Shown piece after piece: positions 21,446-33,595 of a stretch of DNA of 64,000 nt (its first letter is position 1; each line of letters starts with the position of its first letter). A program made the position numbers and the translations under genes. The stretch is from Actinacidiphila bryophytorum (lineage in GTDB: Bacteria > Actinomycetota > Actinomycetes > Streptomycetales > Streptomycetaceae). Location of the stretch: positions 186,001-250,000 of the forward strand of contig NZ_JAFFIX010000006.1 of NCBI RefSeq assembly GCF_016916835.1. Direction: 5' to 3'. The notes under the pieces were generated by a model, which was not told the origin of the DNA, searched no databases, and worked only from the letters and a program-made list of their open reading frames with translations.

Positions 21446-21464
21446 GCCGGGGTGCGGGGGCGGT

Positions 21465-21480
21465 CCTCACAGCCGTGAGG
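21465..21480. terminator. Small hairpin between convergent genes
   Basis: CCTCAC-AGCC-GTGAGG forms a 6-bp stem in the 54-bp gap between the NlpC/P60 gene and the convergent membrane protein gene. It is short and lacks a T run, so its efficiency is doubtful. Confidence 0.4.
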
Positions 21481-21499
21481 CACCGGCGGTCCTACGGCC

Positions 21500-22072
21500 T
21501 CACCGCTGCGGCCCCACCTCCGCCGGCGTGGCGTAGTGCGGCGACCTGCCGTACGCGCCGGGGCCGACCCGGGTGAGTGCGGGCTTCCACAGCACCACGC
21601 CGTGCGCCCGCTCCCACCGGACGGTCTGCCGCGACTGGACGACGCCGAGCAGCATCATCAGCGGGAAGGCGGCGCCGGCCAGCGGCAGGTGGCCCAGCTG
21701 CGTGCACACCAGTGCCCAGGCCGCCGCGACCAGGCCCATCACCACACCGCCGTGCCGCAGGTCGCTGCTGCGGGCGGCGGTGTCCTGCCACAGGGTGCCG
21801 GGGGCCGGCAGCGCCGCCGCGTACTCGCCGGCCGTCCGGACCCGGGAGCGCCGGCCGAACTGCTGGTAGGCCCAGAGCAGCACCACCGCAGCGGTCACGG
21901 CCAGTTGCCCGGCCAGGCTGCTCCCCCGCAGGTCACCGGGGTCCGCGGTCGGCAGCAGCACGGCGAGCGCGAGCGCGCCGCCCACCGCCGCCCCGGCACC
22001 TGAGTACCTGGCCTGGGAGGCCAGGGGCACCAGGTGCGGTGCCCTCGCGGTCTCGATGTCAGCCATCGTCAT
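21500..22072 (-). CDS. Small polytopic membrane protein, candidate immunity protein for the RHS toxin
   Basis: 190 residues. ATG 22072 is preceded by GAGGTGGTGACC and starts 10 bp after the rhs stop, so it is co-transcribed and probably coupled. Hydrophobic segments at about 27-45, 58-78 and a long one at 110-150 (GLVAAAWALVCTQLG, then GAAFPLMMLLGVV) predict four membrane spans. I know no family for it. Position directly after a polymorphic-toxin-type RHS gene whose C-terminal tail is hydrophobic suggests an immunity protein. Immunity proteins of pore-forming colicins are likewise small three- or four-span membrane proteins. This is an inference from context only. Confidence 0.75.
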   Translation of the reverse strand: MTMADIETARAPHLVPLASQARYSGAGAAVGGALALAVLLPTADPGDLRGSSLAGQLAVTAAVVLLWAYQQFGRRSRVRTAGEYAAALPAPGTLWQDTAARSSDLRHGGVVMGLVAAAWALVCTQLGHLPLAGAAFPLMMLLGVVQSRQTVRWERAHGVVLWKPALTRVGPGAYGRSPHYATPAEVGPQR

Positions 22073-22082
22073 GGTCACCACC

Positions 22083-25000
22083 TCACCAGAACTTCAGTTT
22101 CTTCACGCCGCCGACGACGGCCTTGCCGGCGTCGATGACCTTGTGTGTGCCGACCTTGTCCCCGACCCACTTGGCCGCCTTGGCCACCGGTGTACCCGCG
22201 AACTTCGAGGCGTATCCGATGCCGACGAAGACAAAGACCGTCTGGAGCGACGACTTCAGGCACGAGCTGCCGAAGCCGTTTCTGCAGTTGTAGTACGCCT
22301 GGTAGGCGTTGGCCGCCACCTGGAGCACCGTGTACGTGGTCAGGGCAGCGGCACCGCAGACTCCCACACCGGGACCGGTCGTCGCCGCGCAGGCCAGCAT
22401 CATGGCGGCGGAGCCGATCATGACGTCGTTGGACAGCGAGTTCAGCTTGTCCGCCGTGGTACGTCCGTGCGGGAGCTTGACGGCCCCCTTGCACTGCTCC
22501 GCGGAACTGCCGCTCTGCAGGCACTTGTCGAATTCTCTGATCGCCGACGAGAACTTCCCGTCGGCCGAGTCGAGCCAGTTGCGGAAGGTCTTGTCGTCCA
22601 GGTTCGCCCCGCCGTTGTAGCCGAGGTTCTTCCGCAGCCAGTTCTGCGTCTTGGAGTCGACGTGCTTGCCGCCGCTGTTGGTGGACGACGCATGCGTGGT
22701 GGTGTTGCCCTTGCCCGACTTACGGGCGTCGTCCCGCTTCTCTTTCTCGGTGCGGTGGTCGCCGCCGTCGCCCTTGCCCTTGCTGGGGGTGTGCGGGCAG
22801 GCGGGCCAGTCGCCGAAACCGCAGGCCAGGCCGTCGCCGGTCGGGTCGGAGAAGGTCACCGGGTTGTCGGCCGCGTAGCCGTAGCCGTTGAGTGTCTGCG
22901 GTTTGTCGGTCTCCAACTGCGGGTCGATGCTGAGGAAGCGGCCGGTGAGCGGGTCGTACTCCCGGTCGCCGACGTGGGTCAGGCCGCTGTCGGGGTCGGC
23001 CGGGGCGCCCAGGAAGCCCTTGTCATCGGGCCACGCGGCCGGGCTGCTGCCGCGGCTGGTCCCGAAGGGCGTGGTGTAGCGGGTGGTGACCGCCTGGGTG
23101 GTGCCGTCGAGCGAGATGCCCGCGGTGCCGTGGCTGTCGGACGCGATCCAGCTCAGCGCGGACACGCCGGGCTCCGTGGTGCGCTCGGCGACGACCTGTC
23201 CGCCGTCGCCGTCGGTGTACTCGCGCACGCCCCACGTGGTGACCTTGCCGTCCGCTCCCTTCTTCGAGTGCAGTTCGGTGCCGTCGAGGTAGAGCACGCT
23301 CTCGCCGTCGCCGCCGGTGGCGTGCCGGATGAGCAGGTCGTCGTCGGCGTCGTAGAGGTAGCCGGCCGAGTCCGCGCCCTCGGTGGTGCCGGTGAGGTCG
23401 CCCTCGGCGTTCCAGGTCAGGGTCTGGCCGGAGGTGCCGGCGACCGGCCGGGCGGTGGTGTTGCCCGCCTTGTCGTAGACGTAGGTGTCGGCCGCCCCTG
23501 TGCAGGTGCCCGTGGTGACGGTGCTGGTCAGGGTGTGCGGCTGGCCGGGCTTGCCGTAGCAGTAGGTGGTCGTGGCGGTGGCGCCTGCCGCGGTGCGCTC
23601 GGTGTCGCCGGTCCGCAGCCCGCCCGCGGTGTACGTGTAGGTGCTGCTGTACGGCGCCGGGCCGCCCAGTGCCGCGGTCGCGGCCGTACCCGTGGTGCAG
23701 TCGTCGCCGGCCGGTGTCCAGGCGGTGGTCAGCCGCTGGTAGCCGTCGTAGCCGAAGCACTGGGTGTCGGAGGTCGTGGTGCCGCCCAGCGTCGCCGGGT
23801 TGCTGATCTTGGTGACGTCGCCCGCGTCGTCGTAGGTGTAGTGCAGGTCCTGCGGCATCCAGGCGTGGGTGTCGTCGGTGACGAAGCTGCGCAGCAGCCT
23901 GCCGGTGCCCTCCTCGTACTCGTTGTCCAGGTACGCCTGCTTGACCGTCGGCGAGGGCGAGACGCCCAGGGTGAGCTGCTCGGGCTGGGCGGTCGCCGAA
24001 TAGGCGGTGTCCAGCACGTAGTTGGAGGTGCCCACCACGGTCCTGACGTTGCCGGTCGCGGTGTAGCCGTAGCTGATGTTCTCCGCGGGGAGCCCGGCGA
24101 CGGCGGGCTGGCCGCTGTAGGCCAGGGTGCCGTCGGTGTTGTACTTCGCGGTGAAGCTGTAGTCCTGCTGCGCCGCGCCGGAGGCGACCAGCGGGTCCGC
24201 CGCGTCGAGGTGGGTGGTGCTCGCGGTGACGTTGTAGAGGTTGTCGTAGGCGGTCACGGTGTCGGTGTACTGCTTGCCTGCGTCGTAGCGGGTCGAGGAG
24301 GCCGGCTGGCCCTTGGCGACCGTGTCGTAGGTCCAGCTCGCGACCTTGTTCGCGTCGCTGCGGGAGCCCTGCCACAGGGTGGTCTTGCGGCCGAGGTCGT
24401 CGTAGCCGAAGACCTCCCTGCGGCCCTCGGCGTCGGTGTTGGTGTCGACCTGGTCCAGCACCGTGTAGGCGGTGGTGGAGGTGCCCGCGTCGGGGTCGGT
24501 CGCCGAGGTCTGCCGGCCGAAGAGGTCGTAGCCCCAGCTCCACTTGGCCCCGTCGGGGCCGGTCACGGTGAGCTTCTTGTCGTCGCCCGTGTAGGTGTAC
24601 GCGGTCGTGGTGTGCGCGGGCACCGGGGCGGTGGCCCCGAAGTCGGTGTCGGCGTAGGACGGTCCCGCGTACTCGCGCAGCTCGGTGGTGCGGCCCAGCG
24701 CGTCGGTGACCGTGCGGGTCGCGGAGCCGCCTGCGGGGGCGCTGGTCGCGGTGGAGTCACCCGTGTAGGACGTGCTGACCGTCCACTTGGGCACCCCGTA
24801 GACCAGCAACTGGTCGGCGGTGGTGCGTCCGGCGCCGTCGAAGGTGAACTGGTGCTGGGTGGGCGTGCCGCCGTACTCGCCGCGGTCGTAGGTGCCGCCC
24901 GGCGCGTGGGCGCTGTCGAAGGTGTCGGCGTAGGTCGCGGTGGCCAGGCCCCGCGAGTCGTAGCGGGTGTCGGTCAGCAGCCGGCCGCCGATCGGGGTCG

Positions 25001-28000
25001 GCGTCTGCTGCTGGACGGGCCGCAGCAGGGCGTCGTAGATCTGGTAGCTGGTGCTGCGGGCGTTGTTGACGCCGAGTGTGGAGGTGGCCACGTACGACTG
25101 GGTCGCGTTGTCGACGTGGTAGGCGTAGGTGGTGTTGGCGCTCTCGCCGCCGCCCTTGCTGCGGTTGGGCAGCCACACCCCGGTGAGCCGGCCGAGGCCG
25201 TCGTAGGTCGCCTCGGTGAGCTTGTTGTTGGCGTCGTAGATCTGGGCGCGCCGGCCGCGCAGCCGCTCGTAGAAGGTGACCTCGGTCTGGCCCTCCGCGT
25301 TGGTCTCGACGGTCCTGGTCAGCGGGCCTGCGCCGGCCGGGGTGTAGGCGGTGGTGTCGGGGTTGCCCGCCGCGTCCTTGCTGACCAGGGTGCGGCCCAG
25401 GGCGTCGAAGGTCTGGGTGCCGGTGGTCTGCCAGGCGGTGGGCTTGCGCTCACCGCCGGAGTCGGCGGTTGCCGGGTAGGCCGCGGCCCGGCCGGTCCAG
25501 GAGCCGTCGCCCTTGGTCGGGGTCTGGGCCGAGGTCCAGGTGGTGGCCGACGGGCTGTCGTAGACGGTGCCGGTGTCGGAGAGCACGTCGCCGGCGGTGC
25601 TGCTGCCCGCGGGCAGTGACAGTGCGCTGTCCGCGGTGCCGCAGGGCCTGGCGACCTTGCGGGTCCTGGAGACCAGCGACGTCAGGCCGGTGCCGGTGTT
25701 GCGGGCGTACCAGGTGCGGGTGCAGGTCTCGTCGCCGGACGCGGCGGTGTCGCCCGCGTCGTCCTCGGAGACGGGCATGCCGTAGGAGTCGTAGGTGGTG
25801 GCCTTGGAGGTGGCGCGCCACTTCGACTGCGCGGTCAGCCAGGTGTAGGCGTAGGTCTTGCCGAGCCGTACGTAGTAGGCCTCGGTGTCGGCGTACGACT
25901 TGTGCTGGGTGGCGGTCCTGGCCGACCAGGGGTCGTCGAGGGTCGCCGAGATCGCGGTGGCGCCGTTGTAGGTGACGCTCTCACGGGTGAAGCCGGCGTA
26001 CTGGTCGGCGTCGGTGACGGCGGGCACCGCCAGCCCCGGCACGTCAAGACCGGCGACGCTCGCGGAACGGGCGGGCCCCGACTTCTTCTTGTCGCCGTTC
26101 ATGCCCTGCATGTACGTGGTGACGGTCTTCTCGCGGCTGCCGCCGGTCCCGGTGTACTGCGTGACGGTGCCGTAGCCGCGCCAGATCGACCACGTGCGCT
26201 CGTCCTGCGGAGTCAGCGGGCTGTCGTTGTAGTGCCAGGCGGGGCCTGCGTAGTCGTAGGAGTGCACCTCGGGCTCGTTGTTGCCCGTCGGGTCGGCCGT
26301 ACTGACCGACAGCACGCGGTATTTGTGGAACCAGTCGAGGCCCGCGTCGGTGGCACCGTTGATGTGCCAGTAGACCGGGTAGCAGTTCATCGTGTCGTCG
26401 TCCTCGGCCGCGGGCATCTTCAAGCCGCGTACGCAGTCGTCGGCCGTCGACATCGTGACGGTGGTGACGGCGCCGGTCTCGGTGGTGACGCCCTCGATCC
26501 TGGGCCGCGAAAGCGGCAGGATGTTGTCGGTGGCGTCGACCCGGTTGGCGAGCATCTGGTAGGTGAACGACACCGGCTTGAGCGCCACGCTGCCCGCGCT
26601 GCTGCCGGTGCGGGTGATCGAGTCCAGCACCAGCGACTGGTCGGAGCTGTCGCCGATGTCACCGGGGTCGAGGTACTTCTGCGTCAGCGCCCAGGTGTCG
26701 ACCGGGGTGTAGGTCGTGCCGCTGCCCGACCACACCGAGGTCTGCACCTGCGTGAGGCGCTTGCGGGAGAAGAAGGACGGCGAGACCGCCTTGCAGTCGG
26801 TGTCCGAGGCGTTGGCCGCGCATATCTGGTCGAAGGGCACGTCGGGCCAGCTCTGCGCGGTCTTCTCGGTCAGGCTGGAGCAGTCCGCGGCCAGGCAGCG
26901 CTCCTGGTAGCCGAAGTGCACCTGGTAGCCGGCGGTTGCGGTGAAGAGGGTGTCGGACCGCTGCCCGTAGAGGATGTGGTCCAGGTAACCGCCGCGGGTG
27001 TAGGTCGCGTTGGCGGTGGTCGCCTTGTTCTTCTTGTAGGAGTTGGTCTCCGCGGTGTACCAGAACGACTCGGCATTGCCGTGGGTGTCCACGACGTAGT
27101 CGAGGTTCCACCGCCAGGCCTGGTTGTACCAGCGGTCCGCGAAGGCGCTGCCCTTGGCGTAGCCGGGCTCGCCGGAGTCGTCGCCGAAGACGGGCACGGT
27201 CCACACCGAGTTGGTGCGCTGGGTGGTCGCGCCGGGCAGCTTGTTCTGGCCGAAGACGTACTTGGTGCCGTCGCCGGTGGTGACGGTCCAGTACTCGCCC
27301 GAGCCGTCGGCGCTGTCGCCCTGGTCGCCGTTGTCTGCGCCGGTGGAGTGTACGACGGTCGAGGCGTCGTCGTCGGCGAGCCGCCACGTGCCGGTGGTGT
27401 CGTCCTTGACCAGCTCGGTGGACTTGCCGCCCAGCACCAGCGAGGCGTTGTCGTACTTCCAGCACAGGTCGTAGACCTTGGACTGGCCGTCATCGTCGCA
27501 GGAGCCGTAATCGCGGCCGATGTAGGACTCGGCGGTGTCGGTGAAGCCCGAACCCACCTGCGTGCCCTGGTTGTTGGTGGTCGCGGTCAGCCCGTCGACG
27601 CTGCCCGAGTCGTAGGCGAGCCCCACCGAGGGGGCGGGGCCGGCCGCCGCCGACGGCACATCCATGCCGTAGGACCAGGTGAAGGAGCCCGAGGAGTCAC
27701 CGGCGGTCCAACTCGCCGACGGGGAAAGGGCGGTGGCGGTGAAGTCGCCCGCGCCGTCGGTGGCCTCGCCCTCCGCGCCCGCGGTCAGCGCGAGCACCAT
27801 GGGCTGGGCCGCGGCCGACTGCGGCAGGGCCGCAGAAACGGTCTGCGTGGCCGCGTCGTTGCTGCTCGCCACCGGTGTCCCGGTGCGGCACGCGGCCTCC
27901 TCCGGTGTGGTCAGCGCACACGCGGGCAGCCGTTCGAGGCCCAGCCGGCCCGACCAGTTGCCGCCGTAGACCGAGGCGAAGCCGGCGTATCCGAGGCGGA

Positions 28001-28490
28001 TGCCGGCCGCCGGCGCCCCGGCCTGCCCGGTCACCGCGACCAGCACCCCGCGTACGCCGGCCGCCTCGGTGGCGGCCCGGTCGGCGACGGTCACCTGGGC
28101 TCCCGCGGCGCCCCCGGTGAGGGTGACCGGCAGGCCCCCGGCCGACACGGCGGACGTCGCGCCCGCCGCGACCTTCGCGGTGCCGCCCTTCGGCCAGGCC
28201 GCATGCTGCTGGCCGAGCGCGCGGGCCGCCCGCTCGCCGTCCGCCGCCTTCTGCGCGGCGAAGGCGTCGCGCTGCTTCTTCGCACCCAGCGCCACGGTGT
28301 GCGTCGTGGTGCTGCGCGGCTTCTGCACGCCGGTGCGGCCGAGCGCGCCCGGCCCGTCCGCCGCCGCCGCGGGACCGACGCTCAGCCCCAGCATCGGCAC
28401 GACGACCGCTGCCGCCAGCGCCGCGCCGATCGTTCTGCCCCGCCACCACGCCGACCGGCGCGGCAGGCGGAAGCCTGACTGTGGACTCAC
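22083..28490 (-). CDS. Secreted RHS-repeat protein with variable C-terminal toxin-like tail
   Basis: 2135 residues. GTG 28490 has GGGAGGGG upstream. A 13-codon extension lacks a ribosome site. A signal peptide (RTIGAALAAAVVVPMLGLS, then VGPAAAADG) is followed by an N-terminal beta-rich region and many RHS/YD repeats (YDGLGRLTGVW, GYDDLGRKT, TYDDAGDV). The RHS core ends with the conserved GDREYDPLTGRFLSIDP and NPVTFSDPTG. After it comes a 250-residue tail with its own composition: a Lys/Asp-rich linker, a TQNWLRKNLGYNGG segment, then hydrophobic stretches at about 2021-2067 and 2079-2099 and a basic GGVKKLKFW end. RHS shells encapsulate C-terminal toxins. The tail matches no nuclease motif I know and looks membrane-active. 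Confidence 0.93.
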   Translation of the reverse strand: MSPQSGFRLPRRSAWWRGRTIGAALAAAVVVPMLGLSVGPAAAADGPGALGRTGVQKPRSTTTHTVALGAKKQRDAFAAQKAADGERAARALGQQHAAWPKGGTAKVAAGATSAVSAGGLPVTLTGGAAGAQVTVADRAATEAAGVRGVLVAVTGQAGAPAAGIRLGYAGFASVYGGNWSGRLGLERLPACALTTPEEAACRTGTPVASSNDAATQTVSAALPQSAAAQPMVLALTAGAEGEATDGAGDFTATALSPSASWTAGDSSGSFTWSYGMDVPSAAAGPAPSVGLAYDSGSVDGLTATTNNQGTQVGSGFTDTAESYIGRDYGSCDDDGQSKVYDLCWKYDNASLVLGGKSTELVKDDTTGTWRLADDDASTVVHSTGADNGDQGDSADGSGEYWTVTTGDGTKYVFGQNKLPGATTQRTNSVWTVPVFGDDSGEPGYAKGSAFADRWYNQAWRWNLDYVVDTHGNAESFWYTAETNSYKKNKATTANATYTRGGYLDHILYGQRSDTLFTATAGYQVHFGYQERCLAADCSSLTEKTAQSWPDVPFDQICAANASDTDCKAVSPSFFSRKRLTQVQTSVWSGSGTTYTPVDTWALTQKYLDPGDIGDSSDQSLVLDSITRTGSSAGSVALKPVSFTYQMLANRVDATDNILPLSRPRIEGVTTETGAVTTVTMSTADDCVRGLKMPAAEDDDTMNCYPVYWHINGATDAGLDWFHKYRVLSVSTADPTGNNEPEVHSYDYAGPAWHYNDSPLTPQDERTWSIWRGYGTVTQYTGTGGSREKTVTTYMQGMNGDKKKSGPARSASVAGLDVPGLAVPAVTDADQYAGFTRESVTYNGATAISATLDDPWSARTATQHKSYADTEAYYVRLGKTYAYTWLTAQSKWRATSKATTYDSYGMPVSEDDAGDTAASGDETCTRTWYARNTGTGLTSLVSRTRKVARPCGTADSALSLPAGSSTAGDVLSDTGTVYDSPSATTWTSAQTPTKGDGSWTGRAAAYPATADSGGERKPTAWQTTGTQTFDALGRTLVSKDAAGNPDTTAYTPAGAGPLTRTVETNAEGQTEVTFYERLRGRRAQIYDANNKLTEATYDGLGRLTGVWLPNRSKGGGESANTTYAYHVDNATQSYVATSTLGVNNARSTSYQIYDALLRPVQQQTPTPIGGRLLTDTRYDSRGLATATYADTFDSAHAPGGTYDRGEYGGTPTQHQFTFDGAGRTTADQLLVYGVPKWTVSTSYTGDSTATSAPAGGSATRTVTDALGRTTELREYAGPSYADTDFGATAPVPAHTTTAYTYTGDDKKLTVTGPDGAKWSWGYDLFGRQTSATDPDAGTSTTAYTVLDQVDTNTDAEGRREVFGYDDLGRKTTLWQGSRSDANKVASWTYDTVAKGQPASSTRYDAGKQYTDTVTAYDNLYNVTASTTHLDAADPLVASGAAQQDYSFTAKYNTDGTLAYSGQPAVAGLPAENISYGYTATGNVRTVVGTSNYVLDTAYSATAQPEQLTLGVSPSPTVKQAYLDNEYEEGTGRLLRSFVTDDTHAWMPQDLHYTYDDAGDVTKISNPATLGGTTTSDTQCFGYDGYQRLTTAWTPAGDDCTTGTAATAALGGPAPYSSTYTYTAGGLRTGDTERTAAGATATTTYCYGKPGQPHTLTSTVTTGTCTGAADTYVYDKAGNTTARPVAGTSGQTLTWNAEGDLTGTTEGADSAGYLYDADDDLLIRHATGGDGESVLYLDGTELHSKKGADGKVTTWGVREYTDGDGGQVVAERTTEPGVSALSWIASDSHGTAGISLDGTTQAVTTRYTTPFGTSRGSSPAAWPDDKGFLGAPADPDSGLTHVGDREYDPLTGRFLSIDPQLETDKPQTLNGYGYAADNPVTFSDPTGDGLACGFGDWPACPHTPSKGKGDGGDHRTEKEKRDDARKSGKGNTTTHASSTNSGGKHVDSKTQNWLRKNLGYNGGANLDDKTFRNWLDSADGKFSSAIREFDKCLQSGSSAEQCKGAVKLPHGRTTADKLNSLSNDVMIGSAAMMLACAATTGPGVGVCGAAALTTYTVLQVAANAYQAYYNCRNGFGSSCLKSSLQTVFVFVGIGYASKFAGTPVAKAAKWVGDKVGTHKVIDAGKAVVGGVKKLKFW

Positions 28491-28541
28491 AGCTGAACCC
28501 CTCCCTGGAACAACCCGCGTGGAAGGCACGCGGACCTGACT

Positions 28542-28574
28542 GCGGCCGGCACCAGTGGAGTTGGTGCCGGCCGC
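28542..28574 (-). terminator. Strong hairpin between the LamG and RHS genes
   Basis: GCGGCCGGCACCA at 28542-28554 and TGGTGCCGGCCGC at 28562-28574 are perfect 13-bp inverted arms with a 7-base loop. The hairpin lies 31 bp after the LamG stop and 52 bp before the RHS start. No T run follows. It could terminate, attenuate, or protect one part of a bicistronic mRNA, so RHS levels may differ from LamG levels. Confidence 0.75.
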
Positions 28575-28605
28575 GGGATCGGTGGTGCCGGTGGTGGTCC
28601 TTCTT

Positions 28606-31600
28606 TCAGTCGCCGATGACCTGGCCCAGCTGGTCCGGGTCGCTCATCGCGCCCGACCAGACCCTGAGGTCCTGCACGCGGGCGGGCAGGTAGTGGCTCC
28701 AGGCACCGGCCACGAAGGCGTCGCCGACCGAGAAGCGGTCGGCGCCGACGACCGCGGTGTACGGCTGGGTGTCCTCGGGGGCGACGCCCATGTAGAGCGA
28801 GGCGGTGCCGTCCTGCGCGTCGAAGACGCCGGTGACGCGGACCGCGCCCTCGCCGTTGGAGCCGTCGCCGGTGTCGGCGCCGACCTGGACCTCGGAGGCG
28901 GCGCCGCTGAAGGTGCCGTCCGCGTTGAGCCGGCCGAACAGCCAGCGGCTGGTCGGTACGGTCACCTGGTTCAGGTCGTCGTCGAGGATCGTGGTGCGGC
29001 CGGTGATCTGGTACCACAGCCCCCAGGCGGAGCCGTCGGCCGAGCGCTGCCCCGCGACCTGCCCGGCGTACCCGTCGGGCTTGGCCAGGATGGCGTCCTG
29101 GTCGATCTGCACCTGGCTGGTGACGGTGAAGGACCCGGTCTCGTCCACCATCGGTCCCGGTGTCGCCGCCGCGTCGTTGGCGCCGTCCAGCACGATGGCG
29201 CCGCCGGCGAGCGTGGCGCCGTTGGAGAAAGTCAGCGTGTGGGCGTAGCCGCTGCCGGTGTCGTCCAGGCCGGTGGTGCTGACCGCGGCGGGGTCCGGCT
29301 GCCACCGGGCGACGTTCTCGACGGCGGGCTTGCCGTCGGCGTCCAGCAGCTGGGCGTCCAGCGCGATCTCGTCCGGGGTCAGGGCGCGCTGCCAGACCTC
29401 GGCCTCGTCGATCCGGCCCTTCCAGTACTCGGTGTACGCCGCCTTGTTGGGGTCGTTGTAGCGGCCGATCTGCAGCGGCCCGTCGCTCGCGGTCGCCTTC
29501 GCGGCGGTCGGCAGTGCGACCGGGGCGCCCTGCTGCACACCGTTGACGAAGAGGGTGACGGCGTTGGCGGGCTTGTCGTAGGTGGCCGCGACATGCGTCC
29601 ACACGTCGGGCACCACGTCGGTGGTGCCGTTGGCGCCCAGCCAGCTCACCGCGCCGGACTGCGGCCAGGTCCACAGGAAGACCCAGCGGTGGATGCCCGG
29701 CGAGTAGCGCAGCGTGAAGCCGCTCTTGTCGCTGCTGGTCTGCGACAGGACCGTGTGGTAGGCGGTGGTGTCGGCGAGCCGGACCCAGGAGGCGACGGTG
29801 AAGGAGTCCTGGGTGTTGACGACGGGGCCTGCGGTGTCGGCGTAACCGGTCTGCTGGTCGGCCGCCGTGCTGTCGTTGAGCCACAGCGAGTTGTCGCCCG
29901 CGCCGCGCCGGCCCAGGCTGGACCAGCCGGCGCCCGCGTTGTGCAGCGTGGCCGGGTGCCGGGAGCCGGCCTCGGTCGCGCTGTCGGCCGCCGAGGTGCC
30001 GCCGCTGCCGGGGGCGGAGTCGGTGAAGTGCCAGCGGCTGACGGCGTCGGCGCCCTCGGCGACCTTGAAGGTCACGATGGTCTTGGCGCCCCAGCGCCCG
30101 CTGCCTACGTCGTCCTTGGCCCGCACCTGGAGCTGCTGGGTGCCGGTCAGCTGCGGGGTGATCTTCACGGTGACAGGACCCGCGCCGCTGATGGTGGACG
30201 ACCAGGCGCCGCTGGCCAGCTTGTACTGGAAGCCGGCGACCTTGTCACCGCTCGCCGCGGCGAAGGTGAAGGTGCCCGCCTGCCCGGGGCCGCCGGCCGC
30301 CTGGCAGTCGTTGGTGGTGCACGAGGTGTAGGGGCCGCCGAAGGTCACGCTGGGCGCCTTCGGCGCGGTGGTGTCGACCTTGAAGTAGCACCAGCCGTGC
30401 GTGGTCACGGTGCTGTGCGAGTTGATGTGGGTGCTCTGGTTGTCCTCGTACGACCAGGTGGACGCCGCGAGCCGGTAGAGCGGGCCTTCGCTGAGGGTGA
30501 TCGGTGTCGGTGTCGACACCGTGGAGTTGGCCCCCGCGAAGTCCGGCGACATCGGTCTGATCGGCTCGGTCACCACCGACCAGGTGCCGGACGAGGACTG
30601 CTGCTGCATCTGGAAGTCCACCCGCGTCCTGGCCGGCGCGCCTGCCGAGGTGCCGCCCGCGGCGATCTGCGGGCGTGCGGTCAGCTGCGGGTGCGGGTCG
30701 GCGACGACGTCCGGGTCGCTCGCGCTGGGCTCGCAGGAGATGCCGCTGCCCTCCTGGATGCCCGCGTAGGTGGGCGGCACGGGAAGGCCGACGTAGTTCA
30801 CCGTCAGCGTCGCGTCGTTCTTGAATCGCTTCCAGGCCGAGGTGTCGCCCTCGTCGTGGGCGCGCAGCTCAAGGGTGAGCTTGGCGAACTTGCCCGCCGC
30901 GAAGTCCCGCACGGTCGGGGTGAGGTTCTCGTCGCTCTCGGACGGGTTGTCCTTGAACTCGATGGGCGCGTCGGGCGAGTCGGGGTCGCAGGACGAGCCG
31001 CGGCCGGCCGAGAAGGACTCGTCCACCATCCAGTCCAGCTCCTTGGGCCGCGACGCCCAGGTGGTGGCCGAGGAGATGTTGTTCGTACGGACCAGGTCCG
31101 TCTGCCGGGCCGAGCACTGGAAGGCCCAGGGGGACGTCACCCGGAAGGTGGCGGAAAGGACCTGCTTGCCCTTGAGATTTCCCGGGGTGAACTGGAAGTA
31201 CAGTTTCTGGACGTATCCGGGGCCGCAGTAATATCCGTTCCACGTCCCGCATTTCCCGTCGCCCTCGCCATTTGTCCCGTTGGCCCAGGCGTAATCCGAA
31301 TACCCGTCGCTGCGCAGCAGGGTGCGCTCGGGGGCGCCGGAGCTGAGTGCGATGTTCGGGTCGATGTAGAGCGGGTAGGCCGCGGTGTCGGTCTGCTTCA
31401 GCAGCGAAGCGCCGGGGGCCAGCGAGAGCGCGTCACCCGCGACGGTGACCGGTACGGCCGCGGCGCCCGCGCCGGGCGCGGGTCCGTCCACGGCGGAGGC
31501 GGGCGGTGCGGTGGCGGCCTGGTCGGGGGCGGCCTGCGCGCCGGCCCTGGGCCGAACCCCTGACCCGGACTGGGCCTTGGCCTGCGCCTGGGCCGCGGGG

Positions 31601-32343
31601 CCCGTGCCCCGGGAGTCCCACATCTGGGCGGGCGGTGCGGTGAAGATCTGCTTGCCGTCGGCGTCCACGCCGGACAGGCCGCCGCCGGACAGCCTGCCGA
31701 CCCGCAGGCCGCTCGCGTGCACACCGAAGGTGATCTTCTTCAGCGCCGGGTCGGCCGCGGCGGCCGGGGTCTTCACCACCAGCAGTTCGCGGTAGCCCTG
31801 CACCGACGCGGTCAGCCGCAGGTCGACGCCGGGCATGACGTCCGGGTAGAGGGCGCTGTCCCCGTCGAGCACGGGCTTGGGCAGCGTGCCCGGCCAGGTC
31901 AGGGCGACGGTCCTGCCCGCGCTGCCGAGGCTGACCATGGGGGCGGATCCGCCGCCGGAGAAGGCCAGGTCGACCATCGCCGCCTTCGGGCCGACGGTGC
32001 CGTCGGCCCGCACCTGGAGTGTCGCGTCCGGTGCGGTCCAGCCGCCGGCCCTGGTGCGCACCCGCACCGGCACGGAGGACTGCTCCTGCGTGTACGTGTA
32101 GCCGTCGGGGTTCGCGTACGTGGTCGCGAACTCCGTGCGGTCCCCGGTGACCTCGACCCGCTGCCCGCTGGCCGCCGCCCGCGCCGAGGCCGTCAGGTCG
32201 CCGCTCTTGGCGGCGCCCTTCTGCCCCGCGTCGGCCGTCGCGGCGGCCCCGCCGAGCGTCGGCAGCACCGACAGCAGCCCCGCCGCGGCGGCGACCGCGA
32301 CGACGGGTCTGAGCCGCCCGCGCACCCGGGCGCGACGACGCAT
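28606..32343 (-). CDS. Large secreted LamG/jelly-roll protein paired with the RHS gene
   Basis: 1245 residues. ATG 32343 has GCGGAG upstream; a 22-codon extension is not supported. A signal peptide (MRRRARVRGRLRP, VVAVAAAAGLLSVLPTLGG) is followed by an N-terminal region seen in RHS-associated actinobacterial exoproteins. Then come a DNRLRE-like segment (YVQKLYFQFTPGNLKGK), Ig-like stretches and, in the last third, a LamG-like jelly roll (SFTVASWVRLADTTAYHTVLSQ, WTHVAATYD, ALTPDEIALDAQL). A second jelly-roll-like copy ends the protein (SFTVTSQVQIDQD, LQDLRVWSG-type end). It probably binds sugars or surfaces outside the cell. Such proteins are often encoded directly before RHS genes and may help deliver or anchor them. 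Confidence 0.88.
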   Translation of the reverse strand: MRRRARVRGRLRPVVAVAAAAGLLSVLPTLGGAAATADAGQKGAAKSGDLTASARAAASGQRVEVTGDRTEFATTYANPDGYTYTQEQSSVPVRVRTRAGGWTAPDATLQVRADGTVGPKAAMVDLAFSGGGSAPMVSLGSAGRTVALTWPGTLPKPVLDGDSALYPDVMPGVDLRLTASVQGYRELLVVKTPAAAADPALKKITFGVHASGLRVGRLSGGGLSGVDADGKQIFTAPPAQMWDSRGTGPAAQAQAKAQSGSGVRPRAGAQAAPDQAATAPPASAVDGPAPGAGAAAVPVTVAGDALSLAPGASLLKQTDTAAYPLYIDPNIALSSGAPERTLLRSDGYSDYAWANGTNGEGDGKCGTWNGYYCGPGYVQKLYFQFTPGNLKGKQVLSATFRVTSPWAFQCSARQTDLVRTNNISSATTWASRPKELDWMVDESFSAGRGSSCDPDSPDAPIEFKDNPSESDENLTPTVRDFAAGKFAKLTLELRAHDEGDTSAWKRFKNDATLTVNYVGLPVPPTYAGIQEGSGISCEPSASDPDVVADPHPQLTARPQIAAGGTSAGAPARTRVDFQMQQQSSSGTWSVVTEPIRPMSPDFAGANSTVSTPTPITLSEGPLYRLAASTWSYEDNQSTHINSHSTVTTHGWCYFKVDTTAPKAPSVTFGGPYTSCTTNDCQAAGGPGQAGTFTFAAASGDKVAGFQYKLASGAWSSTISGAGPVTVKITPQLTGTQQLQVRAKDDVGSGRWGAKTIVTFKVAEGADAVSRWHFTDSAPGSGGTSAADSATEAGSRHPATLHNAGAGWSSLGRRGAGDNSLWLNDSTAADQQTGYADTAGPVVNTQDSFTVASWVRLADTTAYHTVLSQTSSDKSGFTLRYSPGIHRWVFLWTWPQSGAVSWLGANGTTDVVPDVWTHVAATYDKPANAVTLFVNGVQQGAPVALPTAAKATASDGPLQIGRYNDPNKAAYTEYWKGRIDEAEVWQRALTPDEIALDAQLLDADGKPAVENVARWQPDPAAVSTTGLDDTGSGYAHTLTFSNGATLAGGAIVLDGANDAAATPGPMVDETGSFTVTSQVQIDQDAILAKPDGYAGQVAGQRSADGSAWGLWYQITGRTTILDDDLNQVTVPTSRWLFGRLNADGTFSGAASEVQVGADTGDGSNGEGAVRVTGVFDAQDGTASLYMGVAPEDTQPYTAVVGADRFSVGDAFVAGAWSHYLPARVQDLRVWSGAMSDPDQLGQVIGD

Positions 32344-32504
32344 TCCACTCCGCTTCAAAATACCCACCCCAAGAGCGTTGCGAAAATACAAACGAGCCAA
32401 GGGAAGCATTGCGGAAGGGGAGCGTCAATAGCGAGATTCCAGGTTCGTATCGCCCCGGCGCCAATTCCCCCGGTAGGGTGAATTCCGAATTAACGGAGCA
32501 TGCT

Positions 32505-32521
32505 GGAACGATGTTTGTTCC
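32505..32521. promoter_or_regulatory. Inverted repeat upstream of the LamG/RHS unit
   Basis: GGAAC-GATGTTT-GTTCC is a 5-bp dyad about 160 bp upstream of the LamG start, in a 227-bp gap that is visibly richer in A/T than its surroundings (GTAAAAAAGGG, AATTCCGAATTAACGG). It is a candidate operator for the island. The half sites recall LexA (GAAC/GTTC), but the 7-base spacing is wrong for it. Confidence 0.35.
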
Positions 32522-32570
32522 GGTAAAAAAGGGACCAAAGGGAGGGCTGGGACGCGAGAGGCGTCCGGGC

Positions 32571-33482
32571 TCAGCGCAGGGTGACCTGGGACGGGCCGCG
32601 CAGGGGGGCGAGCGAGAGCACCGTGGGCGGGGTGCGCAGGCCGTCGTTGCCGGTGAACAGCCGCCGCACGGCCGCGAAGTCCGGATCCGGCCCCGCGGTC
32701 GCAGCGGCGGCCTCGTCGTAGAGCGCCCGGATTTCGTCGGTCATGCCGTCCTCGCTGCCAGCGCCGGTGCCCCAGATGTCCCACAGCAGGGTCTCGACCT
32801 TGTTCAGCGCGGCCAGGTCCAGCCGGATGTTGCCTGCGACGAACCAGGAGCCGACCTTCGGGTCCACCTCCAGGGCCAGGCCGAAGCCGTCCGGGTCGGC
32901 CTCGCCCGCGCGGATGCGCTGCCAGGCGTCGCCCGCGACCAGGAAGCGGTCCCTGGGGACGTCCATCGGGTCGAAGTCGACGCGGTAGCGCTCCGGGTCG
33001 GCGATCTGCGGGTCGGCCAGCAGCCAACCGCGCGTGTCGTCCCAGTACTCGGTGACGACGTGGTCCCAGTGGAAGCCGCTGTCGGAGAAGTAGTCGGCGA
33101 AGCCGGAGCGAAGCCGCGCCGGTATCCCCTGGTGCCGCAGCAGGGACACGTGCAGCAGCGTGAAGTCCCGGCAGATGCCGATGAAGCGGTCGGCCCACTC
33201 CCTGCGGCACGACAGCGCGCGCCCGTCGCGCTCCGAGATCAGCCCGAGGATGTCGTCCACGTACCGCGTCTCCGCGTCGTCCCGCATCCGGTCCTCGGCG
33301 ATCGGCACCCCGAACTGCCCGCCTTCCGCGCGGTGCAGCATCACCCCGCGCACCACCCGCGCGAGCTCCCCCACGTCCCGCGGCAGCCCCGCGTACAGCC
33401 CCGCGTGCACCCCCGGATCGGAGGTCCCGCTCTGCGCGCTGTAATAGGCGGCGGCTTCCGGTGCGAGACGGGGTACGGGCAT
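32571..33482 (-). CDS. Transglutaminase-like (protease-fold) protein
   Basis: 303 residues. The catalytic triad of the transglutaminase-like superfamily is visible as Cys104 in ICRDFTLL, His141 in DHVVTEYW and Asp157 in LLADPQI, with GIPARLRSGF between Cys and His as expected. The C-terminal 140 residues are not part of the core fold and have no known motif. There is no signal peptide, so it is cytoplasmic. Bacterial members act as peptidases or amidases more often than as cross-linkers. The substrate is unknown. It stands alone between the LamG/RHS island and the two-component genes. Confidence 0.85.
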   Translation of the reverse strand: MPVPRLAPEAAAYYSAQSGTSDPGVHAGLYAGLPRDVGELARVVRGVMLHRAEGGQFGVPIAEDRMRDDAETRYVDDILGLISERDGRALSCRREWADRFIGICRDFTLLHVSLLRHQGIPARLRSGFADYFSDSGFHWDHVVTEYWDDTRGWLLADPQIADPERYRVDFDPMDVPRDRFLVAGDAWQRIRAGEADPDGFGLALEVDPKVGSWFVAGNIRLDLAALNKVETLLWDIWGTGAGSEDGMTDEIRALYDEAAAATAGPDPDFAAVRRLFTGNDGLRTPPTVLSLAPLRGPSQVTLR

Positions 33483-33595
33483 ACGTGGCCTCCGGCGGAT
33501 TCGGCCACGTATTCGATTGTCCGGGCCGCTGCGGTCCACCGTGTCAAAATTCCGCCGCGGATGTCCAGGGAATTGCCCGGCCCCGGAGAGCGGCG

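What the first reader, a model, noticed from the sequence alone, without database searches (positions are those of the whole stretch)
21500..22835. Candidate membrane-targeting RHS toxin tail with a four-span immunity protein
The RHS core ends at a canonical DPTG. The following 250-residue tail has no known enzyme motif but two hydrophobic stretches and a basic end. Ten bases later a small four-span membrane protein begins. This mirrors the pore-forming colicin/immunity arrangement and may be an undescribed toxin family.
Basis: inference. Interest (0 to 1): 0.7.

Follow-up and report, generated by a model that had tools for sequence, protein, structure and literature searches.

The report
Membrane-attacking bacterial toxin with immunity gene
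A soil actinobacterium carries a probably secreted modular toxin whose interchangeable tip looks built to insert into a rival's membrane, followed directly by a small membrane protein that probably protects the producer; the arrangement is known elsewhere, but this toxin and immunity family appear undescribed.

Summary
An RHS gene (22083-28529, minus strand) ends in DPTG plus a 250-aa tail; 10 nt later a 190-aa protein with four hydrophobic segments begins. Neither matches a known family or solved structure.

Tail and membrane protein recur side by side in 4 of 394 Streptomycetaceae genomes, once in another genus behind an RHS core only 32% identical. At the window's chromosomal site two relatives carry a homologous core (69% and 64%) with unrelated tails and no membrane protein there. 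The tail is modular: an entry-like segment and a hydrophobic, cysteine-containing C-terminal domain diverge independently, and membrane-protein identity follows the C-terminal domain.

Best reading: a polymorphic RHS toxin whose tip inserts into and depolarises membranes, with its immunity protein. The pairing is well supported (about 0.85); pore formation is inferred (about 0.6). The kind is known (Tse5/Tsi5, CDI ionophores); the sequence families look new. Against: the window's tail is only moderately hydrophobic, five membrane-protein relatives are orphans, structure models were poor, toxicity is untested.

The parts
22083..28529 (-). RHS polymorphic-toxin protein, 2148 aa, signal-peptide-like N-terminus, RHS core ending DPTG
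   Evidence: ORF; TIGR03696 Rhs_assc_core E=1.9e-15 and Pfam RHS_repeat E=2.5e-5; N-terminus read, no signal-peptide program run
22083..22835 (-). 250-residue C-terminal tail after DPTG: linker, entry-like segment, hydrophobic cysteine-containing domain (stop codon included)
   Evidence: homologues in G020, G026, G331 and G236
22674..22835 (-). linker of the tail
   Evidence: residues 6-59 of P0001; 65% and 76% identity to G020 and G026, 21% to G331, 19% to G236
22488..22673 (-). entry-like helical segment (KTxxWLxKxLGYxG ... C...C), the part shared most widely
   Evidence: residues 60-121: 69/72/36/37% identity to G020/G026/G331/G236; AF2 helices here have block pLDDT 54-70
22083..22487 (-). 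C-terminal hydrophobic domain, proposed membrane-inserting toxin
   Evidence: residues 122-255: 89/37/19/19% identity to G020/G026/G331/G236; 47 uncharged residues; five helices in a low-confidence AF2 model
22284..22424 (-). 47-residue stretch without D/E/K/R, including Cys154, Cys165 and Cys189
   Evidence: cysteine columns
21500..22072 (-). proposed immunity protein, 190 aa, four predicted membrane spans, C-terminal W-x-R-x(5)-L-W motif
   Evidence: W153, R155 and W162 invariant in the 13 aligned relatives, L161 nearly so; homologues
28606..32409 (-). LamG-domain protein (1267 aa), 76 nt upstream of the RHS gene; homologues beside the RHS genes of G020 and of both G026 loci
   Evidence: Pfam Laminin_G_3 E=2.1e-28; 81.7% in L010, 76% in L011, 70% in L052
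20321..21445 (+). third of three tandem NlpC/P60-type genes (family name recalled, not searched), left anchor of the cargo site; convergent with the immunity gene
   Evidence: matches in 35 of 35 genus genomes, paralogues included; site comparison

Best explanation
This is a polymorphic toxin-immunity module of the RHS type. The RHS protein is probably exported through Sec (signal-peptide-like N-terminus) and carries its C-terminal tail inside or at the end of the RHS shell. On reaching a competing cell the tail's helical entry-like segment positions the C-terminal hydrophobic domain, whose helices, probably held by disulfides between three conserved cysteine pairs, insert into the cytoplasmic membrane from outside and dissipate the membrane potential as a pore or ionophore. 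The four-span protein encoded ten bases downstream sits in the producer's own membrane, binds the inserted or inserting domain and blocks it. Shown here: the gene arrangement, its recurrence, tail swapping at one site, separate divergence of the two tail segments, and absence of the membrane gene where the tail differs. Inferred: export route, disulfides, insertion, depolarisation, binding, toxicity.
For: Tail and membrane protein, found by separate profile searches, lie next to each other in G000, G020, G026 and, in another genus, G331; the G331 core is 32% identical to the window's, while the G331 and G236 cores are 54% identical but their tails 20%. Same site, homologous core: G026:C35 and G018 carry unrelated tails and no membrane-protein homologue beside them. 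Mosaic divergence: window v. G020 entry 69%, C-terminal 89%, membrane protein 68%; window v. G026 entry 72%, C-terminal 37%, membrane protein 36%. Cysteines 110, 120, 154, 165, 189 and 197 align in the four tails that have this membrane protein, and the 11 columns invariant among those four in the C-terminal domain are only Cys, Gly, Ala, Val, Ser and Thr. In G236, which keeps the entry segment but lacks the last three cysteines, a different, two-span protein follows. Hydrophobic RHS tails in the genus go with multi-span neighbours, p = 0.002. CDI ionophores have a comparable layout: entry domain, helical C-terminal bundle, hydrophobic immunity proteins of about 30% identity within a group (PMC11630599, abstract and one section); an RHS-borne pore-forming tip with a membrane immunity protein is established for Tse5/Tsi5 (PMC10684867, abstract and passages; PMC9637101, passages).
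Against: No toxicity data. The window's own tail is below the usual hydropathy cut-off (1.48 v. 1.6), and runs as long as its 47 uncharged residues occur in 6 of 89 background tails. By plain identity the G331 C-terminal domain (19%) is no closer to the window's than that of G236 (19%); counting G331 as the same type rests on its cysteines, the profile match and the adjacent membrane protein, which is partly circular. AF2 models are poor (mean pLDDT 48 and 53, two sequences each). No perfect glycine zipper in the hydrophobic part of the window, G020 or G026 tails. Five of nine clear membrane-protein homologues have no RHS gene in the 13-18 kb examined. The scan finds only two spans in the G020 membrane protein and three in G331's. 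Another RHS protein of the window's own genome has a hydrophobic tail ending in KKLKFW, yet its neighbour has only one hydrophobic segment (L150). Profile links to further tails (L084, L118) are weak, with large bias corrections.
Confidence: 0.62

Rival explanations
1. Toxin-immunity pair, but the C-terminal domain is an unrecognised enzyme or inhibitor acting on a membrane or envelope target (lipid, lipid II, a transporter), and the membrane protein shields or replaces the target.
For: No structure is known; conserved cysteines and moderate hydrophobicity also suit a small disulfide-rich envelope-active domain.
Against: Of 11 columns invariant in the C-terminal domain of the four tails, none is charged, His, Asn or Gln (S, C, G, V, C, C, C, T, G, S, A), although Cys, Ser or Thr could still be catalytic; hydrophobic character is kept while sequence diverges.
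Confidence: 0.15
2. The hydrophobic segment is a translocation or anchoring device rather than the toxic activity; the tail is displayed on the producer's surface or serves another function such as adhesion.
For: The RHS protein and its LamG neighbour look like secreted surface proteins (N-termini by eye; LamG domain); the tail's hydrophobicity is moderate.
Against: A surface anchor would not need a co-varying membrane protein that is absent where the tail is swapped.
Confidence: 0.12
3. The membrane protein is a resident of this NlpC/P60 neighbourhood, unrelated to the RHS tail.
For: In G015 an orphan homologue sits at the same site, and in another genus (G370) an orphan is convergent with an NlpC/P60-type gene 34% identical to the window's.
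Against: The pair occurs away from that site in G026 (contig C14), and no NlpC3 homologue was found in the 13 kb around the pair in G331; the membrane protein is missing at the site in 20 of 23 loci examined, two of them with RHS genes of other tails.
Confidence: 0.07
4. A decayed or inactive module kept by chance.
For: Patchy distribution: tail in 5 of 394 family genomes, and only the own genome of 374 class genomes.
Against: Open frames of more than 2180 codons in all five RHS genes, no stop inside, and dN/dS of 0.30 (core) and 0.39 (tail) between G000 and G020.
Confidence: 0.04

Closest known systems
Tse5/Tsi5 of Pseudomonas aeruginosa, an RHS pore-forming toxin with a membrane immunity protein (PMC10684867 abstract and passages; PMC9637101 passages)
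   Same: RHS shell, C-terminal membrane-inserting toxin, immunity protein of the cytoplasmic membrane, encoded as a pair
   Different: Tse5 is a T6SS effector with a PAAR-like N-terminal domain and Tsi5 has two predicted spans; here a signal-peptide-like N-terminus, a LamG neighbour, a four-span protein and conserved cysteine pairs. No PDB chain matches the tail profile by sequence
CDI ionophore toxins CdiA-CT/CdiI of E. coli (PMC11630599 abstract and section 6)
   Same: Variable entry domain plus helical C-terminal membrane domain; small hydrophobic, highly polymorphic immunity proteins (about 30% identity within a group)
   Different: CdiA rather than RHS carrier, Gram-negative, CdiI are 72-100 aa two-helix hairpins; the shared glycine zipper is not perfect in the window tail
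BiTLP, Teneurin-like RHS/YD protein of Bacillus inaquosorum (PMC13018210, section 8 and passages)
   Same: Gram-positive RHS/YD shell with a hydrophobic C-terminal fragment that permeabilises E. coli when given a signal peptide
   Different: Teneurin-like superfold; relationship of the tails not tested here
EsxX, TelE and TspA, T7SS membrane-depolarising toxins (PMC12744356 passages; TspA/TsaI also in the listing)
   Same: Membrane-depolarising toxins of Gram-positive bacteria, polytopic membrane immunity proteins, orphan immunity islands
   Different: T7SS delivery, glycine zipper, no RHS core
Tox-WTIP, the pore-forming class in the polymorphic-toxin survey (PMC3482391 passages)
   Same: Predicted pore-forming tail on RHS-type proteins
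   Different: Defined by RxxR and Wx[ST]IP motifs over two helices; listed for proteobacteria

Membership tests
RHS polymorphic toxin | RHS repeats and Rhs-associated core ending near DPxG, followed by a variable tail | tested here: met
   TIGR03696 57.1 bits over a 32.5 cut-off, RHS_repeat 25 bits over 22; tail starts at DPTG
RHS polymorphic toxin | homologous core with exchangeable tails | tested here: met
   At one site cores 69% and 64% identical carry unrelated tails
RHS polymorphic toxin | cognate immunity gene directly downstream that co-varies with the tail | tested here: met
   4 of 5 tail homologues are followed by it, the fifth (G236) by a different two-span protein; 2 of 2 same-site cores with other tails lack it. 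Protection itself untested
RHS polymorphic toxin | auto-cleavage by paired aspartates before the tail | tested here: inconclusive
   An Asp-Pro (SIDPQLE) and DPTG lie 26 residues apart, against D1141/D1164 in Tse5; the GL of the usual DPxGL (recalled) is missing
Pore-forming or ionophore toxin | membrane-spanning hydrophobic helices in the toxic domain | tested here: inconclusive
   Window tail maximum 1.48, relatives 1.62-2.05; 47-residue uncharged run
Pore-forming or ionophore toxin | depolarisation or permeabilisation of membranes | not testable with these tools
   needs an experiment
CDI ionophore (CdiA-CT) | CdiA carrier protein | tested here: not met
   The carrier is an RHS protein ending in DPTG
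CDI ionophore (CdiA-CT) | entry domain plus five-helix membrane bundle | tested here: inconclusive
   Two segments with separate divergence; AF2 gives four plus five helices but at mean pLDDT 48
CDI ionophore (CdiA-CT) | glycine zipper GxxxGxxxG | tested here: not met
   None in the hydrophobic part of the window, G020 or G026 tails; present in G331 and G236
Tox-WTIP | RxxR and Wx[ST]IP motifs | tested here: not met
   No Wx[ST]IP in the printed tail, read by eye; motif definition
Colicin-type pore-former | colicin pore-forming domain | tested here: not met
   No such Pfam or NCBIfam match for the tail at E up to 1

The most novel reading that the evidence does not exclude
Actinobacterial RHS proteins carry a diverse, undescribed superfamily of cysteine-stapled, membrane-inserting ionophore tails. 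A shared entry segment and RHS shell are reused while the C-terminal membrane domain and its immunity protein change together, so that one toxin strategy is met by several unrelated membrane immunity families: the four-span W-x-R-x(5)-L-W family here, two-span proteins (G236, L077), and a two-span protein with a long C-terminal soluble region (L118).
Probability: 0.35. Interest if true: 0.65.

Novelty: new member of a known kind. Interest (0 to 1): 0.45.

Why it matters
The membrane-depolarising polymorphic toxins I met in the papers listed are from Gram-negative bacteria and Bacillota. If this reading holds, the multi-copy RHS genes of Actinacidiphila (2 to 19 core matches per genome, fragments included, in 35 of 35 genomes) include a recurrent membrane-attacking class with matching membrane immunity proteins, giving a defined toxin-immunity pair for asking how filamentous Gram-positive soil bacteria compete and recognise kin. 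The natural tail swaps at one chromosomal site and the separately diverging entry and toxin segments make tests of immunity specificity straightforward.

Tried and rejected
Database identity: Pfam, NCBIfam, PHROGs, PADLOC and PDB sequence searches gave nothing significant for tail or membrane protein; scanning the 13 rows of the membrane-protein alignment against NCBIfam and Pfam gave only weak hits to single members. Plasmid collection: no match for either. Public genome-contig scans: the membrane protein alone found nothing, the tail alignment found one locus, A. epipremni, which is genome G026. Class-wide sampling: tail only in the own genome (1 of 374), membrane protein in the own genome plus one weak match (2 of 374).

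A perfect glycine zipper as a unifying mark was rejected. A four-cysteine spacing pattern as a family signature was rejected: it also matches 11 background tails. A genus search with the two L084/L118-type tails found them in 3 of 35 genomes, not followed further.

Considered and rejected: that the membrane protein belongs to the NlpC/P60 site; that the more distant proteins in G011, G013, G017 and G342 are immunity proteins (no RHS homologue in the 8-11.5 kb fetched). The G006, G169, G436 and G526 matches of the membrane-protein searches are short, weak and lie in much longer frames, so they were treated as chance.

Faults of my own scripts: the G026 core lines are out of frame and were discarded. 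In one search the query called TGase was cut out of frame (its first 35 residues are the end of the neighbouring regulator, by eye); it served only as a position mark. Rows dropped from the background of 90 RHS ends: L096 (no stop in the stretch) and L086 (10-aa tail). The neighbour rule was tightened between (71 of 88 tails with a next ORF, 5 of them with two or more spans; 68 tails, 6 with two or more).

Papers: no report of membrane-acting RHS tails in Streptomyces or Actinacidiphila appeared in the listings (20 of 41 shown; 20 of 21 shown); open-licence library only.
Full report
What is there. The window lies in contig C56 of an 8.05 Mb genome. The genus is taken to be Actinacidiphila, because the contig of same-genus genome G026 has the length and the match place of A. 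epipremni PRB2-1 NZ_JAATEJ010000002.1. On the minus strand a three-gene run reads LamG-domain protein (28606-32409), 76 nt, RHS protein (22083-28529), 10 nt, 190-aa membrane protein (21500-22072). The RHS core is recognised by TIGR03696 and RHS_repeat. The tail after DPTG is 250 aa, with no significant family match and no PDB match. The RHS N-terminus looks like a Sec signal peptide (basic start, hydrophobic stretch, AAAA end); no predictor was run.

Hydrophobicity. The membrane protein has four segments at a cut-off of 1.4, three at 1.6; relatives show 2 (G020), 4 (G026), 4 (G015), 4 (G025) and 3 (G331). Net charge is +3 in the middle loop and +5 in the C-terminal part, 0 in the N-terminal part, and -1 and 0 in the two short hairpin loops, which suggests N-in and C-in. 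The tail is less clear-cut: its best 19-residue mean is 1.48, below the common 1.6 threshold, while the tails of G020, G026, G331 and G236 reach 1.62, 1.94, 2.05 and 1.93. It does contain 47 residues without a charge, not reached in 2000 shuffles (mean 18.4, maximum 46), although 6 of the 89 background tails listed there have runs of 47 or more.

Recurrence. Single-protein searches of 150 relatives found the tail in 3 genomes and the membrane protein in 6, one of which (G006) I judge chance. Profile searches of 394 Streptomycetaceae genomes found the tail in 5 (G000, G020, G026, G331, G236) and the membrane protein in 15, of which 9 have E below 1e-9. In four genomes (G000, G020, G026, G331) the two are adjacent in the same order. 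In G236 the entry-like segment is shared and the next gene is a 96-aa two-span protein. A caution: in the C-terminal domain G331 and G236 are equally far from the window (19%); what sets G331 apart is the full set of six cysteines, the stronger profile match (3.5e-17 against 3.5e-9) and the homologous membrane protein. The five other clear membrane-protein homologues (G015, G025, G318, G370, G330) have no RHS homologue in the 13-18 kb examined. They are best read as orphan immunity genes, a recognised feature of such systems (EsxX paper, passages), but this is the main result against a strict pairing. Beyond the family, 374 genomes sampled across the class gave only the own genome for the tail, and own plus one weak match for the membrane protein.

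Tail swapping at one place. The third NlpC/P60-type gene beside the module has matches in 35 of 35 genus genomes, paralogues included. I examined the site in 23 genomes of the 35: window, L010 (G020), L012 (G015) and 20 more; 12 were not fetched. RHS core at the site: 4 of 23 (window, G020, G026:C35, G018). Membrane-protein homologue: 3 of 23 (window, G020, and G015 without RHS). The G026:C35 and G018 cores are 69% and 64% identical to the window's, have wholly different tails, and no membrane-protein homologue beside them; G026 has one elsewhere, with its matching tail on contig C14. In the other 18 loci neither was found; some are joined almost directly, others carry unrelated cargo. L053 and L062 are short (9 kb), and L062 ends at a contig end inside the RHS gene.

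Two-part tail. Against the window, the entry-like segment (residues 60-121) is 69% identical in G020 and 72% in G026, but the C-terminal domain (122-255) is 89% and 37%. The membrane protein is 68% and 36% identical in the same two genomes, so it follows the C-terminal domain, not the entry segment or the core (84% and 79%). Between window and G020, dN/dS is 0.30 (core), 0.34 (LamG), 0.39 (tail) and 0.74 (membrane protein): maintained, with the membrane protein changing fastest. Cysteines 110, 120, 154, 165, 189 and 197 align in all four tails that have the membrane protein; in G236 the last three are missing. The 11 columns invariant among the four in the C-terminal domain hold only Cys, Gly, Ala, Val, Ser and Thr. 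Disulfides are an inference.

How unusual is it in this genus? RHS cores number 2 to 19 matches per genome. From that list I took 90 RHS 3' ends: 30 loci returned by the tool (one per genome, high-scoring) and 60 picked down the list, not a random sample. Of 88 usable tails of 60 aa or more, 13 have at least one segment at 1.6 or above and 5 have two. Among the 68 with a coding-like next ORF, a neighbour with two or more spans follows 4 of 9 hydrophobic tails and 2 of 59 others (Fisher p = 0.002); collapsed to tail families, 4 of 9 and 2 of 29 (p = 0.02). By the same cut-off the window's own tail would count as non-hydrophobic. A profile of the four C-terminal domains picked up two further tails, L084 (E = 1.8e-5) and L118 (E = 1.6e-4), with bias corrections of 10 bits or more; a two-span protein follows L118, and no coding-like ORF was found after L084. 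A contrary case is L150 in the window's own genome: hydrophobic, ending KKLKFW, followed by a protein with only one hydrophobic segment.

Mechanism. The layout resembles studied systems: Tse5, an RHS protein whose encapsulated C-terminal fragment is delivered to the membrane and forms pores, neutralised by Tsi5 with two predicted spans (PMC10684867 abstract and passages, PMC9637101 passages); CDI ionophores with an entry domain, a five-helix membrane domain and polymorphic hydrophobic immunity proteins (PMC11630599, abstract and section 6); BiTLP, a Bacillus RHS/YD protein whose hydrophobic tail permeabilises E. coli when exported (PMC13018210, section 8); and T7SS toxins neutralised by membrane proteins (PMC12744356, passages). 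AF2 gave four helices in the entry segment (block pLDDT 54-70) and five in the C-terminal domain, but at mean pLDDT 48, which is not usable as proof. I hold the toxin-immunity reading at about 0.85, membrane action at about 0.65 and the full statement at 0.62.

Novelty. The kind (RHS toxin with a membrane-active tip and membrane immunity protein) is known; the tail and immunity families matched nothing in the libraries searched, and the listings of my literature searches showed no report in Streptomyces or Actinacidiphila (open-licence papers only).

Noticed in passing
L052:14501-15328 (G026:C35): At the same site a homologous RHS core carries a tail with a long glycine-rich linker and a domain with a sub-threshold ETX_MTX2 match (E=0.25), possibly an aerolysin-like beta pore-former; no coding-like small gene was seen between it and the NlpC/P60 gene.
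   Followed up: partly
L062:5461-6315 (G018:C4): Third, unrelated tail on a 64%-identical RHS core at the same site, also without an obvious immunity gene next to it.
   Followed up: partly
window 21446-33595 and L048-L067: The stretch between the third NlpC/P60-type gene and a LuxR-type regulator and sensor kinase (named by eye) is a variable cargo site across the genus, from almost directly joined to about 15 kb of inserts.
   Followed up: partly
L150 (G000:C18:35200-38047): Another RHS protein of the window's genome has a hydrophobic Cys-containing tail that also ends in KKLKFW but is followed by a 188-aa protein with only one hydrophobic segment.
   Followed up: partly
L036:2132-4064 (G318): Orphan homologue of the membrane protein flanked by two other membrane-type proteins (81 and 299 aa, by eye), looking like an orphan immunity cluster.
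   Followed up: no
L035:9047-10420 (G331): A transposase-like gene (by eye) lies right after the tail/membrane-protein pair.
   Followed up: no
L077, L091, L115, L118, L153, L156: Other RHS tails of the genus are followed within about 110 nt by different proteins with two or three hydrophobic spans, candidates for further membrane toxin-immunity pairs; the L091 and L115 tails themselves score below the hydropathy cut-off.
   Followed up: partly
window 28606-32409: The LamG-domain protein upstream has homologues beside RHS genes with either kind of tail (L010, L011, L052), suggesting a delivery or adhesion partner of the RHS shell.
   Followed up: no
L037:1135-2876 (G370): An orphan of the membrane-protein family in another genus is convergent with and close to the end of an NlpC/P60-type gene, as in the window.
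   Followed up: partly
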